A stretch of DNA of 64,000 nt from a virus: positions 23,867-87,866 of IMG/VR virus record IMGVR_UViG_3300025674_000023; one strand, written 5' to 3'. The number at the start of each line of letters is the position of its first letter. The stretch's first letter is position 1. The notes beneath the pieces were generated by a model. It was not told the DNA's origin and searched no databases. It saw only the letters and a program-made list of their open reading frames with translations. Shown one piece after another: positions 6,775 through 62,886 of the stretch. A program made the translations under genes and the position numbers.

Positions 6775-6780
6775 GTCTTA

Positions 6781-6806
6781 GGAGGTAATTGACACCTCCT
6801 TTTTTA
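6781..6806 (+). terminator. Rho-independent terminator after regA
   Basis: GGAGGT stem, AATTGAC loop, ACCTCC stem, then a run of T. Ends the clamp/regA operon. The loop contains TTGACA, the -35 box of the next promoter. Confidence 0.85.
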
Positions 6807-6817
6807 TTTGATATAAT
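6789..6817 (+). promoter_or_regulatory. Sigma70-type promoter P1, upstream of TIGR-like unit 1
   Basis: TTGACA (6789-6794), 17 bp, TATAAT (6812-6817): a perfect consensus early promoter whose -35 box lies in the terminator hairpin loop. The predicted start near 6824 would make an RNA that begins just upstream of the first hairpin unit (6837). Confidence 0.8.
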
Positions 6818-6893: not shown

Positions 6894-6932
6894 TTGACAG
6901 AAGACTGATTTAGATTTATAATATCAGTCTTC
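6894..6932 (+). promoter_or_regulatory. tasR promoter: Sigma70-type promoter P2 with embedded inverted repeat
   Basis: TTGACA (6894-6899), 17 bp, TATAAT (6917-6922). A perfect 10-bp inverted repeat GAAGACTGAT (6900-6909) / ATCAGTCTTC (6923-6932) brackets the -10 box, as an operator would. TIGR-like unit 2 begins exactly 20 nt after the -10 box, the same spacing as P1 to unit 1. Confidence 0.8.
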
Positions 6933-7056: not shown

Positions 7057-8169
7057 ATGAATCTTTTTACAGCAGACGTAGGACAAGGAAAAGTCCACAT
7101 TTATGATAGTAATAGAGACATTCCTTATTTAAAACTGCCTCAAGATCGTTTAATTAATCTTGATATTGACGGATTTGAATCTGGAGATGTTATTGTAATT
7201 GAAGATGCTCACCTCCGTGAGAGAGTGGAGGGTGGATTGAGTCTTGCTCATGCATTTTTTATCCACGAATTGGTTACACTGTATGAGAATGCAGAAGAAC
7301 GTCAAATTACAATACTTCTATTTCCACAAAAGAAAACGCCTATTGTAAGGAAACTTGCGGGATACGACCCAAAGCATCGTAAAACTAATAAAACTTTTAT
7401 GGATGAGTATGGAATATCTACTGATGAAGCAGATATTCGATCAATTGCCAAATTTTTAAAAAGGGATAAAGAAGCATTTAAGAGATTAAAAAAATTTAAA
7501 CCAATCACTCAAGAAGAATATCAAGAACAAAATCAGCATAAGTTTGATTTTGTACAAGAATGTAATCTAGATCTTAATATTGCCAGAACACAAGGTTATG
7601 GTTTTGATGATTATTATGATTATGGTGACGATGATGCAGTAACTCAATTTATTAAAAATCAAAAGTATGAACTTGCTAGTCGTTTGATGGGAGATGGTAT
7701 CTTTGATTTGGATTCAGTTTCTACTTTTACTGGAGAAGAGTTGATGCAGGCATCCGGACTTTATTATAGTAAGAGTAAGAGTAAGAGTGGAGAACTGAAT
7801 GCAATTCAATCAGTAAGTCGTCTTTACACTGTAGTAGCATCTATTCTTCGTCCTAATGGAGAACTCCGTAAGAGGGGATTTCCTCCTGGGCATAAGTATG
7901 AAGGCAAAAAAATGAATGTGCTTTGGAAGTGGTGTAAAGAAAACTATTTTGGATGCAAACCATTCCATGAAAAACAGGGAGTAGCATCATCTAATTATAA
8001 GCAGCATATGAGACCAGGAGTTTCTAATTTTGAAGGAAAATCTTTGTCTATTGGTGCTGATGATACTGAATACAATTTCTTTAAAACGGAAAGATCTGTA
8101 GTAGATAAAAAAACTCAAGAAATATGGTATGTGCTTCGTGAAATGATTGTTGAGGATGGACTTCGTTAG
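7057..8169 (+). CDS. tasR: RuvC-like TIGR-associated (TasR-type) protein, putative RNA-guided nuclease
   Basis: 370 aa. The N-terminal part looks like an RNase H/RuvC fold: an Asp on the first strand (FTADVGQGKVHIYD, D7), acidic residues on a later strand (DVIVIEDAHL, E49/D50), and TDEADIRSIAKFL (D123/D126) like the last catalytic Asp of RuvC. Residues 195-345 are helical, with SGELNAIQSVSRLYTVVASI, and could be the guide-binding (Nop-like) domain; this I cannot prove by eye. Hairpin units with paired 8-nt variable segments flank the gene on both sides, the arrangement expected for TIGR-Tas systems, in which a Tas protein uses a dual-spacer RNA to bind or cut DNA. The stop codon TAG overlaps the first edge repeat of the 3' array. 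An IS110-like protein is the alternative, but no transposon ends are seen. Confidence 0.72.
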   Translation: MNLFTADVGQGKVHIYDSNRDIPYLKLPQDRLINLDIDGFESGDVIVIEDAHLRERVEGGLSLAHAFFIHELVTLYENAEERQITILLFPQKKTPIVRKLAGYDPKHRKTNKTFMDEYGISTDEADIRSIAKFLKRDKEAFKRLKKFKPITQEEYQEQNQHKFDFVQECNLDLNIARTQGYGFDDYYDYGDDDAVTQFIKNQKYELASRLMGDGIFDLDSVSTFTGEELMQASGLYYSKSKSKSGELNAIQSVSRLYTVVASILRPNGELRKRGFPPGHKYEGKKMNVLWKWCKENYFGCKPFHEKQGVASSNYKQHMRPGVSNFEGKSLSIGADDTEYNFFKTERSVVDKKTQEIWYVLREMIVEDGLR

Positions 8170-19961: not shown

Positions 19962-19986
19962 GGAGACCTTAGGGTCTCCTTTTTTT
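19962..19986 (+). terminator. Rho-independent terminator
   Basis: GGAGACC / GGTCTCC stem with a short TTAG-type loop and seven T. The final T starts the next late promoter box. Confidence 0.88.
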
Positions 19987-19993
19987 ATAAATA
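19986..19993 (+). promoter_or_regulatory. T4-type late promoter
   Basis: TATAAATA 31 bases before the ATG at 20024, directly after a terminator. This is the late promoter core of T4-like phages, recognised by the gp55/gp33 and clamp-dependent polymerase. Confidence 0.75.
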
Positions 19994-25993: not shown

Positions 25994-26192
25994 GGAAACT
26001 TGGAGAAAAATGGATGAGATTGATCCACTAACTCCCAAAGTTTCTGAATGCAAAGGAAACTGTAAGTGTAACTGTCTAAAAACTGAAGATGCCATAAAAA
26101 TATATCAAGAAGCAGCTGCTGCCGATGATTTTATTTTTGGAGATTATGATTATACTAAAGAATGGATAAATGATTTCAACAAGGAGGGGTAA
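25956..26192 (+). CDS. Small Cys-rich protein after nrdB
   Basis: 78 aa. GGAGG (25940-25944) precedes the ATG at 25956. A CKGNCKCNC cluster in the middle could bind a metal, followed by an acidic C-terminus (FIFGDYDYTKEW). Coupled to nrdB by a 38-base overlap. A redox partner role for RNR is tempting, but there is no CxxC glutaredoxin motif. Confidence 0.6.
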   Translation: MSQKIHSQDSNFEETWRKMDEIDPLTPKVSECKGNCKCNCLKTEDAIKIYQEAAAADDFIFGDYDYTKEWINDFNKEG

Positions 26193-26207
26193 TACCCTCC
26201 TTTTTTT
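26183..26207 (+). terminator. Terminator of the gene 61-nrdAB operon
   Basis: GGAGGG / CCCTCC stem, seven T. The hairpin overlaps the stop codon of the preceding gene. Confidence 0.88.
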
Positions 26208-26208
26208 A

Positions 26209-26216
26209 TATAAATA
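26209..26216 (+). promoter_or_regulatory. T4-type late promoter
   Basis: TATAAATA right after the terminator and 22 bases before the ATG at 26238. Confidence 0.75.
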
Positions 26217-29453: not shown

Positions 29454-29464
29454 CATATGTGTAA

Positions 29465-29499
29465 AGAGGGTTGACAACCCTCTTTTTTTTGTGTAAAAT
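29465..29499 (+). terminator. Terminator fused to an early promoter
   Basis: AGAGGG / CCCTCT stem with TTGACAA at the loop and eight T. TTGACA (29471-29476) plus 17 bp plus TAAAAT (29494-29499) forms a sigma70-type promoter for the downstream genes. Confidence 0.8.
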
Positions 29500-38743: not shown

Positions 38744-38771
38744 AACCTCCTCTTAAAGGGGAGGTTTTTTT
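38744..38771 (+). terminator. Terminator after barrel gene 1
   Basis: AACCTCC / GGAGGTT arms and seven T. Just upstream, a 16-bp palindrome CTGATATTAATATCAG (38720-38735) spans the stop codon. Confidence 0.85.
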
Positions 38772-38774
38772 ATG

Positions 38775-38859
38775 GTTAAAATTAAGTTAACCTTGCTTAA
38801 ATACAGAGATTTGTTCTTTAATTGACCTTAACTACAATATCAAAATTTTTTGATATAAT
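38775..38859 (+). promoter_or_regulatory. Candidate Pho-box region and extended -10 promoter for barrel 2 and pstS
   Basis: TTAA cores at 38776, 38787 and 38797 (10-11 bp apart) and at 38818 and 38828 (10 bp apart), including CTTAACTA, resemble the cyanobacterial Pho box PyTTAAPyPy(T/A). Downstream is TGATATAAT (-10 at 38854-38859) without a good -35 box, as in activator-dependent promoters. Confidence 0.5.
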
Positions 38860-40292: not shown

Positions 40293-40318
40293 GGGGGATT
40301 TTTATCCCCCCCTTTTTT
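40293..40318 (+). terminator. Terminator after pstS
   Basis: GGGGGAT / ATCCCCC stem with a TTTT loop and a T-run. A TGCTATAAT extended -10 (40281-40289) lies just in front with TTGAAA 16 bp upstream, so a transcript could also start at this hairpin. Confidence 0.85.
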
Positions 40319-40534
40319 ATGGTTCCATTTTATATTGATATCAATTACCAAAAGGTAGAAGTTCCACAAGAGATTCTTCTCTATTGTGACTACTTTACTG
40401 TTGATGCAAAACGTGAAGATCTTCGTTATCTTGATTGCGTTTATATGAATATGGGAATTTATGGAAATATTCCAGAACAAATGAGAGAAATGCGTCGTAG
40501 ATATGGGTATCAAGTTCGACCCATATTTGAGTGA
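40319..40534 (+). CDS. Small hypothetical protein
   Basis: 71 aa starting MVPFYIDINYQKVEVPQEI. The ATG abuts the terminator T-run, so there is no room for a normal ribosome site unless the read-through transcript supplies it. Acidic then basic C-terminus. Function unknown. Confidence 0.55.
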   Translation: MVPFYIDINYQKVEVPQEILLYCDYFTVDAKREDLRYLDCVYMNMGIYGNIPEQMREMRRRYGYQVRPIFE

Positions 40535-41212: not shown

Positions 41213-41263
41213 ACTTTGTGTATTTCAACACAAAGTTGACGTTTTCAAACTTCAAACTATTAT
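41213..41263 (+). promoter_or_regulatory. Hairpin followed by sigma70-type promoter
   Basis: ACTTTGTGT / ACACAAAGT hairpin (41213-41236) whose last base begins TTGACG (41236-41241); after 16 bp comes TATTAT (41258-41263). Drives the run of tiny ORFs 41292-42340. Confidence 0.65.
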
Positions 41264-42827: not shown

Positions 42828-42879
42828 TGCCAGTTTCACGACTGGCACACTTGACTAAATACCTATCAAACCTTATAAT
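42828..42879 (+). promoter_or_regulatory. Hairpin then sigma70-type promoter
   Basis: TGCCAGT / ACTGGCA hairpin (42828-42847), then TTGACT (42851-42856), 17 bp, TATAAT (42874-42879). A CTAAATACC late-like box overlaps the spacer. Confidence 0.75.
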
Positions 42880-43701: not shown

Positions 43702-43900
43702 AATCGTCACGGATGGACGTTAACAGCACTGGTCGGGAACCCCCCCCTTCAAGTCATGGAGAGACTTTAAAAATACTGGTGGAGTCATATGACCCTCTAT
43801 GGTTTCTTGTTTCCTAAAAACAAGTGGTGCGGATGGAGGTAACTCCCGCCTGGTTTCTTGTTTCCAGTTAAAGAACAAGTGGCGAGCCTGAATAATACTT
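43702..43900 (+). ncRNA. Gene-free region with repeated hairpins, candidate structured RNA
   Basis: No ORF. TGGTTTCTTGTTTCC occurs at 43800 and 43851, and ACAAGTGG at 43820 and 43875. Each copy folds as a hairpin (CTTGTTT / AAACAAG; CTTGTT / AACAAG). Between them GCG-GAT-GGAG-GTAA-CTCC-CGC makes a GNRA-capped stem, and GTCATATGAC is a palindrome at about 43784. An eight-C run is at 43740-43747. The stretch looks much richer in G and C than its flanks. Confidence 0.5.
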
Positions 43901-43935
43901 AGACGGTTGACAACAACCGTCTTTTTTAGTATGAT
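43901..43935 (+). terminator. Terminator fused to the glycan-cluster promoter
   Basis: AGACGGTTG / CAACCGTCT stem, ACAA loop, T-run. TTGACA (43907-43912) in the stem-loop plus 17 bp plus TATGAT (43930-43935) forms the promoter 25 bases before the ATG at 43960. Confidence 0.82.
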
Positions 43936-43959: not shown

Positions 43960-45006
43960 ATGCCTCAATATGTCAAAAAAGCACTTATATTGGGTGCTGG
44001 TGGATTTATTGGAAGTCACATGGTCAAAAGACTCAAGTCTGAAGGATATTGGGTTCGTGGTGTAGATCTTAAAAGACCGGAATTTTCTGAAACTAAAGCA
44101 GACGAATTTATTCAAGGAGATTTACGTGATGTAGATTTTGTTCGTCGAGTTTTAGAATATAAGGGAGATCGAGGTAACTTCTACCATTCGGTTCCTTATC
44201 GTTATATTCAATGTTTTGATGAGATCTATCAGTTTGCTGCTGATATGGGTGGAGCAGGTTTCGTTTTTACTGGCGAAAACGATGCTGATATTATGCACAA
44301 TTCAGTTACTATTAATCTGAATGTGCTTGAATGTCAGCGCAAGATGAATGAAGAAAAGGGTAAAAATACTACCAAGATCTTCTACTCTGGATCTGCTTGT
44401 ATGTATCCTGAGCATAATCAACTCGATCCTGATAACCCAGATTGCCGTGAAGAATCCGCATATCCCGCAAATCCAGATTCGGAATATGGATGGGAAAAAC
44501 TTTTCTCAGAGCGTCTATACTTTGCCTACAATCGTAACTACGGTATTCCTGTACGTGTTGCTCGCTATCATAATATCTTTGGTCCGGAAGGCACCTGGGA
44601 CGGTGGAAGAGAGAAAGCACCAGCTGCAATCTGCCGCAAAGTTGCTCTCCTCCCGGAGTCAGGTGGATCTATCGAAGTGTGGGGAGACGGTCTACAAACT
44701 CGTTCCTTCCTGTACATTGATGAATGCATCGAAGCAACTAGAAGATTGATGGATAGCGACTTCATGGGACCTGTGAATATCGGTTCTGAAGAAATGGTCA
44801 CTATCAATCAATTGGTAGATACTGCTGCTAAAGTTGCTGGTAAGACTGTAGAGAAAAACCATATTGATGGTCCTCTTGGTGTTCGTGGTCGTAACTCTAA
44901 TAATGATTTGATTAGAGAAAAACTTGGTTGGGATTATTCACAGACACTAGAAGAAGGCATTCGTAAAACATACGAGTGGATTAACATACAGATTGAAAAA
45001 CGATGA
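43960..45006 (+). CDS. GDP-mannose 3,5-epimerase-like NAD-dependent epimerase
   Basis: 348 aa short-chain dehydrogenase fold. GAGGFIGSH binds NAD; YGWEK is the YxxxK catalytic pair; SGSACMYPEHNQL, GGREKAPAAICRK, GDGLQTRSFLYIDE and GVRGRNSNNDLI are signature blocks of plant-type GDP-mannose 3,5-epimerase, which makes GDP-L-galactose or GDP-gulose. First gene of the glycan cluster. Probably supplies a nucleotide sugar for host or phage surface glycans. Confidence 0.85.
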   Translation: MPQYVKKALILGAGGFIGSHMVKRLKSEGYWVRGVDLKRPEFSETKADEFIQGDLRDVDFVRRVLEYKGDRGNFYHSVPYRYIQCFDEIYQFAADMGGAGFVFTGENDADIMHNSVTINLNVLECQRKMNEEKGKNTTKIFYSGSACMYPEHNQLDPDNPDCREESAYPANPDSEYGWEKLFSERLYFAYNRNYGIPVRVARYHNIFGPEGTWDGGREKAPAAICRKVALLPESGGSIEVWGDGLQTRSFLYIDECIEATRRLMDSDFMGPVNIGSEEMVTINQLVDTAAKVAGKTVEKNHIDGPLGVRGRNSNNDLIREKLGWDYSQTLEEGIRKTYEWINIQIEKR

Positions 45007-60684: not shown

Positions 60685-60715
60685 TAATACTCATTATGTT
60701 ATGGTATCCGAACAA

Positions 60716-60752
60716 AGAGGGGCTTGACCCCTCTTTCTTTTTGCTATATAAT
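60716..60752 (+). terminator. Terminator of the glycan cluster fused to the hli promoter
   Basis: AGAGGGG / CCCCTCT stem with CTTGA loop and a T-rich tail. TTGACC (60724-60729) in the hairpin plus 17 bp plus TATAAT (60747-60752) forms the promoter for hli at 60780. Confidence 0.85.
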
Positions 60753-60779: not shown

Positions 60780-60989
60780 ATGACTGTAACAACTAACGAG
60801 CGTGGGCAACAAAACATGTGGGCAATGGAACCCCGTATGTATATCTCGAAGGAAGATGCAGAGAAGTATGGTCTGGAAACTCATGCCGAGAAAGCGGAGC
60901 GTTTAAACGGACGCACTGCAATGATGGGATTTTTGGCCGCAATTATTTCATATGCATTGACAGGAAAACTTTTCTTTGGCATTATTTGA
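60780..60989 (+). CDS. hli: High-light-inducible protein
   Basis: 69 aa. One chlorophyll a/b-binding type helix AERLNGRTAMMGFLAAIISY with the Glu, Asn and Arg ligand pattern ExxNGRxAMxG. Protects photosystems and pigments from excess light during infection. ATG at 60780; the frame is open to 60696 but begins after the promoter. Confidence 0.93.
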   Translation: MTVTTNERGQQNMWAMEPRMYISKEDAEKYGLETHAEKAERLNGRTAMMGFLAAIISYALTGKLFFGII

Positions 60990-62583: not shown

Positions 62584-62886
62584 CAAGCAGGGGATATTAC
62601 GGTATATTAAGCAGGTCTTCGGAAAAACCGTCAAAACCTACCCAAATGGGAATCCCCAAACGAGGAGGTTGACAGATACGGAAATTCGGAGTATACTAAA
62701 TAAATCAACAACGTTAAGGAATGTAACGTTCCTTAAGAAAAGTTGATCACTTGCTGAAATGGGTCTAACCACCTTACCGAGGCTAAGCAAGTAAAAGACG
62801 CCTCTTATATCCACACTGGAGGGTGGTGTGGAAATATCATATACTCGGTTCGTCCCCCCGAACTCTTACTAACCCTTTTTTCAAAA
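62584..62886 (+). promoter_or_regulatory. psbA promoter and structured leader
   Basis: No ORF. TTGACA (62669-62674), 17 bp, TATACT (62692-62697) is the promoter, with ACTAAATAAA overlapping it as a possible late element. The leader of about 180 bases contains nested hairpins: ATCAAC..GTTGAT enclosing TTAAGGAA / TTCCTTAA, a stem ACTTGCT / AGCAAGT, and CCACAC / GTGTGG. Such leaders may stabilise psbA mRNA. Confidence 0.6.

What the first reader, a model, noticed from the sequence alone, without database searches (positions are those of the whole stretch)
43901..43935. Terminator-promoter composites as a genome-wide rule
At four places (6781-6817, 29465-29499, 43901-43935, 60716-60752) the hairpin of an intrinsic terminator contains TTGAC(A/C), and a -10 box follows exactly 17 bp later. 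Upstream transcription stops and new transcription starts within 40 bases. Similar hairpin plus -35 contacts occur at 41213-41263 and 42828-42879. The hairpin sequence GGTTGACAACC-type is thus doing two jobs.
Basis: partly seen in the sequence, partly recalled or inferred. Interest (0 to 1): 0.65.

Follow-up and report, generated by a model that had tools for sequence, protein, structure and literature searches.

The report
Terminators with built-in promoters in cyanophages
In these viruses of marine cyanobacteria, one stretch of about 40 bases seems to end the RNA of one gene and start the RNA of the next, because the start signal is written inside the stop-signal hairpin; both signals are conserved in dozens of relatives, but only about a fifth of the terminators are built this way.

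Summary
The two extra places (41213, 42828) are promoters beside hairpins without T-tracts, so not terminators. It is well above chance: 4 of 9 window terminators against 9 of 499 T-tract controls; 0 of 5000 hairpin shuffles reach 4. It is not a "genome-wide rule": about 20% of terminators in eight cyanomyovirus sequences, none in Syn9, T4 or sampled cyanobacteria. Another 14% or so carry a T4-type late box (TATAAATA) just after the T-tract.

At the epimerase (wcaG) and hli genes, relatives show two independent constraints. Stems change with compensating substitutions while -35, T-tract and -10 stay. Where the upstream unit differs, hairpin and T-tract vanish but a promoter usually remains.

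At 43901 the terminator half tracks the wcaG RNA (RF01761), which ends 8 nt upstream: 36 of 37 distinct relatives with the RNA have the hairpin, 2 of 35 without it do. The gene's promoter thus lies downstream of this "5'-UTR riboswitch candidate", which looks like a 3'-end or read-through element. Function is inferred; no RNA ends were measured.

The parts
6780..6817 (+). Composite 1: terminator hairpin 6780-6800, T-tract, -35 TTGACA 6789-6794 (in the loop), -10 TATAAT 6812-6817; follows the regA-like gene, precedes a 370-aa unknown gene
   Evidence: regA PF01818; relatives with other stems L177, L187, L193
29463..29499 (+). Composite 2: hairpin 29463-29485, T-tract, -35 TTGACA 29471-29476, -10 TAAAAT 29494-29499; precedes a SegE-type GIY-YIG endonuclease gene
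   Evidence: PF19835; relatives L162, L167
43901..43935 (+). Composite 3 (the finding): hairpin 43901-43922, T-tract, -35 TTGACA 43907-43912, -10 TATGAT 43930-43935; precedes the nucleotide-sugar epimerase (wcaG) gene at 43960
   Evidence: covariation in relatives
60715..60752 (+). Composite 4: hairpin 60715-60735, T-tract, -35 TTGACC 60724-60729, -10 TATAAT 60747-60752; precedes a high-light-inducible (hli) gene
   Evidence: hli phrog_178; relatives; S-SKS1 and S-PM2
43798..43893 (+). wcaG RNA (RF01761), 96.4 bits, ends 8 nt before composite 3; no clear promoter of its own in relatives
43960..45006 (+). nucleotide-sugar epimerase (wcaG-type) gene, downstream of composite 3
   Evidence: phrog_540, PF01370
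43117..43701 (+). 2OG-Fe(II) oxygenase gene upstream of the wcaG RNA; predicted source of the transcript that ends near 43922
60780..60989 (+). hli gene, downstream of composite 4
19962..19993 (+). Late-type composite: hairpin 19962-19979, T-tract running into TATAAATA at 19986
26181..26216 (+). Late-type composite: hairpin 26181-26202, T-tract, TATAAATA at 26209
41213..41263 (+). Not a composite: hairpin without T-tract after tRNA-Ser; TTGACG with 16-bp spacer to TATTAT begins at the hairpin's edge
42828..42879 (+). Not a composite: hairpin without T-tract after tRNA-Pro; a TTGACT-17-TATAAT promoter lies beside it, not inside

Best explanation
The four sites are compact composites of an intrinsic terminator for the upstream gene and a sigma70-type (host RNA polymerase, early-class) promoter for the downstream gene. 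Shown from sequence: the -35 hexamer sits in the loop and inner 5' arm of the hairpin; the rest of the hairpin and the T-tract form the 17-bp spacer; the -10 box begins 2-6 bp after the T-tract. In relatives the stem is kept by pairing, while -35, T-tract and -10 are kept as sequence. Inferred: polymerase arriving from upstream releases its RNA in the T-tract, between -35 and -10, and a new RNA starts about 7 bp after the -10 box. The arrangement insulates the downstream gene (hli, sugar epimerase, endonuclease) from upstream transcription at a cost of about 40 bp. At 43901 the terminator half belongs with the wcaG RNA, which so becomes the 3' end of the upstream transcript (or a gate on read-through), not the 5' leader of transcripts from the epimerase's own promoter. 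Speculative: a polymerase that keeps sigma after termination could re-start at the promoter it already overlaps.
For: Presence and geometry. Enrichment: 19/96 terminators in seven cyanomyovirus isolates plus the window, against shuffled hairpins mean 3.7 (max 10 in 400 runs), swapped tails mean 6.8 (max 15), T-tract controls 126/7163, T4+KVP40 1/60. Position: among 195 cyanophage terminators without the wcaG RNA, 33 strong promoters start 11-20 nt before the stem's 3' end, against 0-8 in every other 10-nt bin. Covariation at the epimerase site: 31 distinct stems, 94.8% of cells paired, 40 cells with both sides changed against 13 in shuffles, 0/500; slid registers at most 72%; 37+15 sequences give the same picture. 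Dissociation: with wcaG RNA 36 hairpin / 1 none; without 2 / 33, p 7.5e-17; a promoter is found in 27 of 34 loci lacking both RNA and hairpin. Second site: hli relatives keep TTGAC-17-TATA(A/C)T with several different stems, and two (L133, L147) keep the promoter without a hairpin. Isolates: S-SKS1 and S-PM2 have it before annotated hli genes.
Against: No transcript ends were measured; termination efficiency and promoter use are inferred. Many epimerase-site -35 boxes are TTGCAT, only 3/6 to the consensus, so promoter strength is uncertain there. Promoter matches in the RNA-less loci must be read against a 22% rate in random windows. It is far from universal (Syn9 0/9, S-SSM7 1/11). The epimerase set is one gene family, and its core filter required TT, T5 and a -10 with A2 and T6, so conservation at those positions is partly by construction. 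Alignment A1 left out two degenerate stems (L002, L076), both from loci without the RNA; one search includes them.
Confidence: 0.82

Rival explanations
1. Chance overlap: AT-rich DNA after T-tracts often looks like a -10 box, and hairpins sometimes hold TTGAC.
For: Tails of cyanophage terminators are rich in -10-like sequence; swapping tails among terminators still gives 6.8 hits on average.
Against: 19 observed against a mean of 3.7 for shuffled hairpins and 1.8% of T-tract controls; no hit in the reverse direction; conservation across relatives with different stems.
Confidence: 0.03
2. The palindrome is an operator for a repressor that covers the -35 box, and the RNA hairpin is irrelevant.
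For: A palindrome over the -35 box is a typical operator position (general knowledge).
Against: The palindrome's letters are not conserved, only its pairing; a T-tract follows where the hairpin is present and is mostly lost with it (27 of 33 distinct loci lacking both RNA and hairpin have no T6); it tracks the upstream RNA rather than the downstream gene.
Confidence: 0.05
3. At 43901 the unit is a riboswitch: the wcaG RNA controls whether polymerase from upstream reads through the terminator into the sugar operon, and the composite promoter gives constant early expression.
For: The RNA is followed within about 10 nt by the terminator in nearly all relatives; Weinberg 2010 rates it a riboswitch candidate (PMC2864571).
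Against: The terminator does not overlap the conserved RNA domain and its stem varies freely, so no conserved anti-terminator is visible; the promoter would make the switch leaky.
Confidence: 0.35
4. Handover: the composite is selected so that a sigma-retaining polymerase, after releasing RNA, re-starts at the overlapping promoter, coupling output of the second gene to the first.
For: E. coli polymerase stays on DNA after intrinsic termination and re-initiates at nearby promoters (PMC6978380; PMC6978322, listed).
Against: No test in cyanobacteria; simple compactness explains the layout; the cyanobacterial DNA sampled does not use it (0/92).
Confidence: 0.2

Closest known systems
Intrinsic (Rho-independent) terminators
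   Same: G+C-rich hairpin of 7-10 bp, small loop, T-tract, directly after a gene
   Different: Loop and inner arm hold a fixed hexamer, the -35 box, and a -10 box follows the T-tract
sigma70-type promoters of host polymerase (T4 early class)
   Same: TTGACA-like and TATAAT-like boxes, 17-bp (some 16-bp) spacer
   Different: The spacer is built from a terminator arm plus T-tract
E. coli ampC/frd overlap (from memory, not tested here)
   Same: One operon's terminator overlaps the next gene's control region
   Different: There the terminator lies downstream of the ampC promoter and acts as an attenuator; here the -35 is inside the hairpin and the design recurs at many genes
T4-type late promoters (TATAAATA)
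   Same: Two window terminators run straight into TATAAATA; 28 of 195 cyanophage terminators have it within 20 nt
   Different: No -35 is needed, so the late box follows the T-tract instead of spanning the hairpin
wcaG RNA motif RF01761 (Weinberg 2010, PMC2864571)
   Same: Same RNA, same neighbouring gene types (sugar genes, hli)
   Different: Described there as sitting upstream of genes it may regulate; here a terminator and the gene's promoter lie between RNA and gene

Membership tests
Intrinsic terminator | Stable G+C-rich hairpin followed by T-tract, downstream of a gene | tested here: met
   5-30 nt after the upstream stop codons for composites 1, 2 and 4; composite 3 follows the wcaG RNA instead
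Intrinsic terminator | Pairing, not letters, conserved in relatives | tested here: met
   epimerase site; hli site (by inspection)
Intrinsic terminator | RNA 3' ends in the T-tract | not testable with these tools
   needs 3'-end sequencing or in vitro transcription
sigma70-type promoter | -35 and -10 at 16-18 bp | tested here: met
   17 bp at all four window sites
sigma70-type promoter | Kept where the terminator is absent | tested here: met
   27 of 34 epimerase loci lacking RNA and hairpin against 22% of random windows; hli L133, L147
sigma70-type promoter | RNA 5' end about 7 bp after the -10 | not testable with these tools
   no start-site data available here
wcaG RNA as cis-regulatory 5' leader | Matches RF01761 | tested here: met
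   96.4 bits
wcaG RNA as cis-regulatory 5' leader | Lies between the gene's promoter and its start codon | tested here: not met
   the predicted promoter lies downstream of the RNA; within 250 nt upstream of the RNA no late box and only background-level promoter matches, one score-10 exception (L328)
Operator palindrome over -35 | Conserved palindrome letters | tested here: not met
General rule for cyanophage terminators | Most terminators are composites | tested here: not met
   19/96; Syn9 0/9; S-SSM7 1/11

The most novel reading that the evidence does not exclude
Cyanophages have evolved a recurrent one-piece stop-start element in which polymerase that ends one RNA is handed directly to the promoter it already overlaps; at the epimerase site this element closes the wcaG RNA, so a known riboswitch candidate is really the 3' end (or read-through gate) of the upstream gene's RNA rather than a 5' leader.
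Probability: 0.2. Interest if true: 0.8.

Novelty: new variant of a known kind. Interest (0 to 1): 0.55.

Why it matters
Two signals are read from the same letters in different ways, one as RNA pairing and one as DNA sequence, with comparative evidence for both. It offers a compact stop-start part for tandem genes and a natural test bed for re-use of polymerase after termination. It also changes the likely role of the wcaG RNA: in most cyanophages examined it cannot be on the RNA that starts at the gene's own promoter.

Tried and rejected
Operator palindrome, chance overlap and 'rule for all terminators' were tested and rejected. The wcaG RNA as an independent small RNA with its own promoter: within 250 nt upstream no late box and only background-level promoter matches were found; L328 had a score-10 match that was not followed up. 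Folding of the whole 43702-43932 stretch was no more stable than shuffles (z -0.7), so no anti-terminator was claimed. Paper searches for overlapping terminator-promoter elements in phages found nothing comparable; only open-licence PMC papers are held, so an earlier description in subscription journals (for example start-site mapping of Syn9) cannot be excluded. A search for the filamentous-phage gene III case gave no usable paper.

Full report
What the window is. It lies in an 87.9-kb IMG/VR virus record, related at 77-79% DNA identity to T4-like cyanophages, best S-SKS1, with nine tRNA genes, psbA, hli and sugar genes.

Observation. All four named sites are as described. Each has a 7-10 bp hairpin and a T-tract; a -35 hexamer starts in the hairpin; a -10 hexamer follows after exactly 17 bp. 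Folding energies are -9.7 to -13.8 kcal/mol, below shuffles. The two further places are different: both hairpins lie next to tRNA genes and lack a T-tract, one promoter has a 16-bp spacer, and the promoter stands beside the hairpin.

Chance. With one fixed terminator definition the window has 9 terminators, 4 of them composites, against 9 of 499 T-tracts without a hairpin; 0 of 5000 shuffles that keep the stems paired reach 4. In seven isolate genomes plus the window, 19 of 96 terminators are composites, against a mean of 3.7 for shuffled hairpins, 6.8 for exchanged tails and 126/7163 for T-tracts; T4 and KVP40 together have 1 of 60. In IMG/VR loci without the wcaG RNA 22 of 105 are composites, all 22 at 17 bp although 16-18 was allowed. 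Strong promoters start 11-20 nt before the stem's end in 33 cases among 195 terminators, and 0-8 in any other 10-nt bin. None was seen in 92 terminators of 1.47 Mb of cyanobacterial DNA, mostly not from picocyanobacteria.

Not a rule. Syn9 0/9, S-SSM7 1/11, S-PM2 2/13, P-SSM4 2/13, P-HM1 1/7, P-SSM2 3/15, S-SKS1 6/19, window 4/9. Prochlorococcus phages often use a 16-bp spacer. A second kind exists: TATAAATA, the T4 late box, directly after the T-tract, 28 of 195 within 20 nt and at most 2 in any other bin; the window has it at 19986 and 26209.

Dual constraint. Eighty relatives of the epimerase gene were fetched and their upstream DNA read. Stems differ widely but stay paired. On 31 distinct sequences 94.8% of cells pair, 40 cells have both sides changed (13 in shuffles), 0 of 500 shuffles are as high, and slid registers reach at most 72%. 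Inner positions that overlap the -35 stay fixed, as expected for a shared signal, though TT, T5 and the -10 frame were part of the selection of sequences. The -35 is TTGACA, TTTACA or TTGCA(T/A/C). Among 72 distinct upstream regions hairpin and wcaG RNA go together: 36 both, 1 RNA only, 2 hairpin only, 33 neither. In loci with neither, the T-tract is mostly gone but a promoter is found in 27 of 34, against 22% of random windows. In L068 and L079 the same -10 region is kept and the -35 is supplied by the end of the upstream reading frame. The hli site repeats the pattern: TTGAC-17-TATA(A/C)T with stems such as GGGGC..GCCCC, GGACC..GGTCC and GCACCC..GGGTGC, and L133 and L147 with the promoter but no hairpin. 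S-SKS1 and S-PM2 have it before annotated hli genes, and S-SKS1 before an epimerase.

The wcaG RNA. RF01761 matches 43798-43893 at 96.4 bits and ends 8 nt before the terminator. In 30 further places the RNA mostly begins a few tens of bases after an upstream stop codon, has at least six unrelated upstream and nine downstream gene families (the epimerase is over-represented because it was the query), and is followed by a terminator and a -10 box in nearly all. Within 250 nt upstream no late box was seen, and only background-level promoter matches apart from one in L328. Weinberg et al. treated it as regulating the gene downstream and as a possible riboswitch (PMC2864571); later phage papers repeat that (PMC9964418, PMC9602691). 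With terminator and promoter between RNA and gene, the RNA cannot be on transcripts that start at the composite. It can act only on read-through from upstream, on the upstream RNA's 3' end, or as a processed RNA.

Mechanism. Shown: co-location, enrichment, pairing kept by compensation, promoter kept without hairpin. Inferred: stop and start at these bases. Speculative: re-use of the same polymerase, known for E. coli in vitro (PMC6978380).

Limits. No transcript data. Terminators were defined strictly (G+C stem, loop 3-8, at most one G-T pair), so counts are lower bounds. The literature searched is open-licence only. Locus sets reached through a gene query are not random samples of phages.

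Noticed in passing
43798-43893; L309-L338: The wcaG RNA sits after the stop codon of varied upstream genes and is closed by a terminator, so its Rfam label as a cis-regulatory leader is doubtful in cyanophages.
   Followed up: yes
43702-43797; also L312, L333, L338: Upstream of the wcaG RNA lie further wcaG-like modules (hairpin ending in ACTGGTGGAG or ACTGGTCGG); in some phages the RNA looks like part of a tandem array.
   Followed up: no
19962-19993, 26181-26216: Terminators whose T-tract runs straight into a T4-type late box TATAAATA; enriched across cyanophages.
   Followed up: partly
6894-6922: A second perfect promoter (TTGACA-17-TATAAT) about 100 bp after composite 1, before a gene starting at 7057; the stretch between carries repeated pieces and may encode a short RNA.
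   Followed up: no
L313, L316, L320, L330 and others: A conserved small hydrophobic protein of about 77 aa lies directly upstream of the wcaG RNA in 16 of the loci.
   Followed up: no
62747-62845: PhotoRC-II RNA just upstream of psbA (41 bits, just over the cut-off).
   Followed up: no
41213-41263, 42828-42879: Hairpins without T-tract shortly after tRNA-Ser and tRNA-Pro, each followed at once by a promoter; possibly tRNA 3' processing signals.
   Followed up: partly
38744-38778, 40293-40320; S-SKS1: Several hairpin-T-tract units run straight into TTTTTTATG; in some cases this is the TG of a TGnTATAAT box.
   Followed up: no
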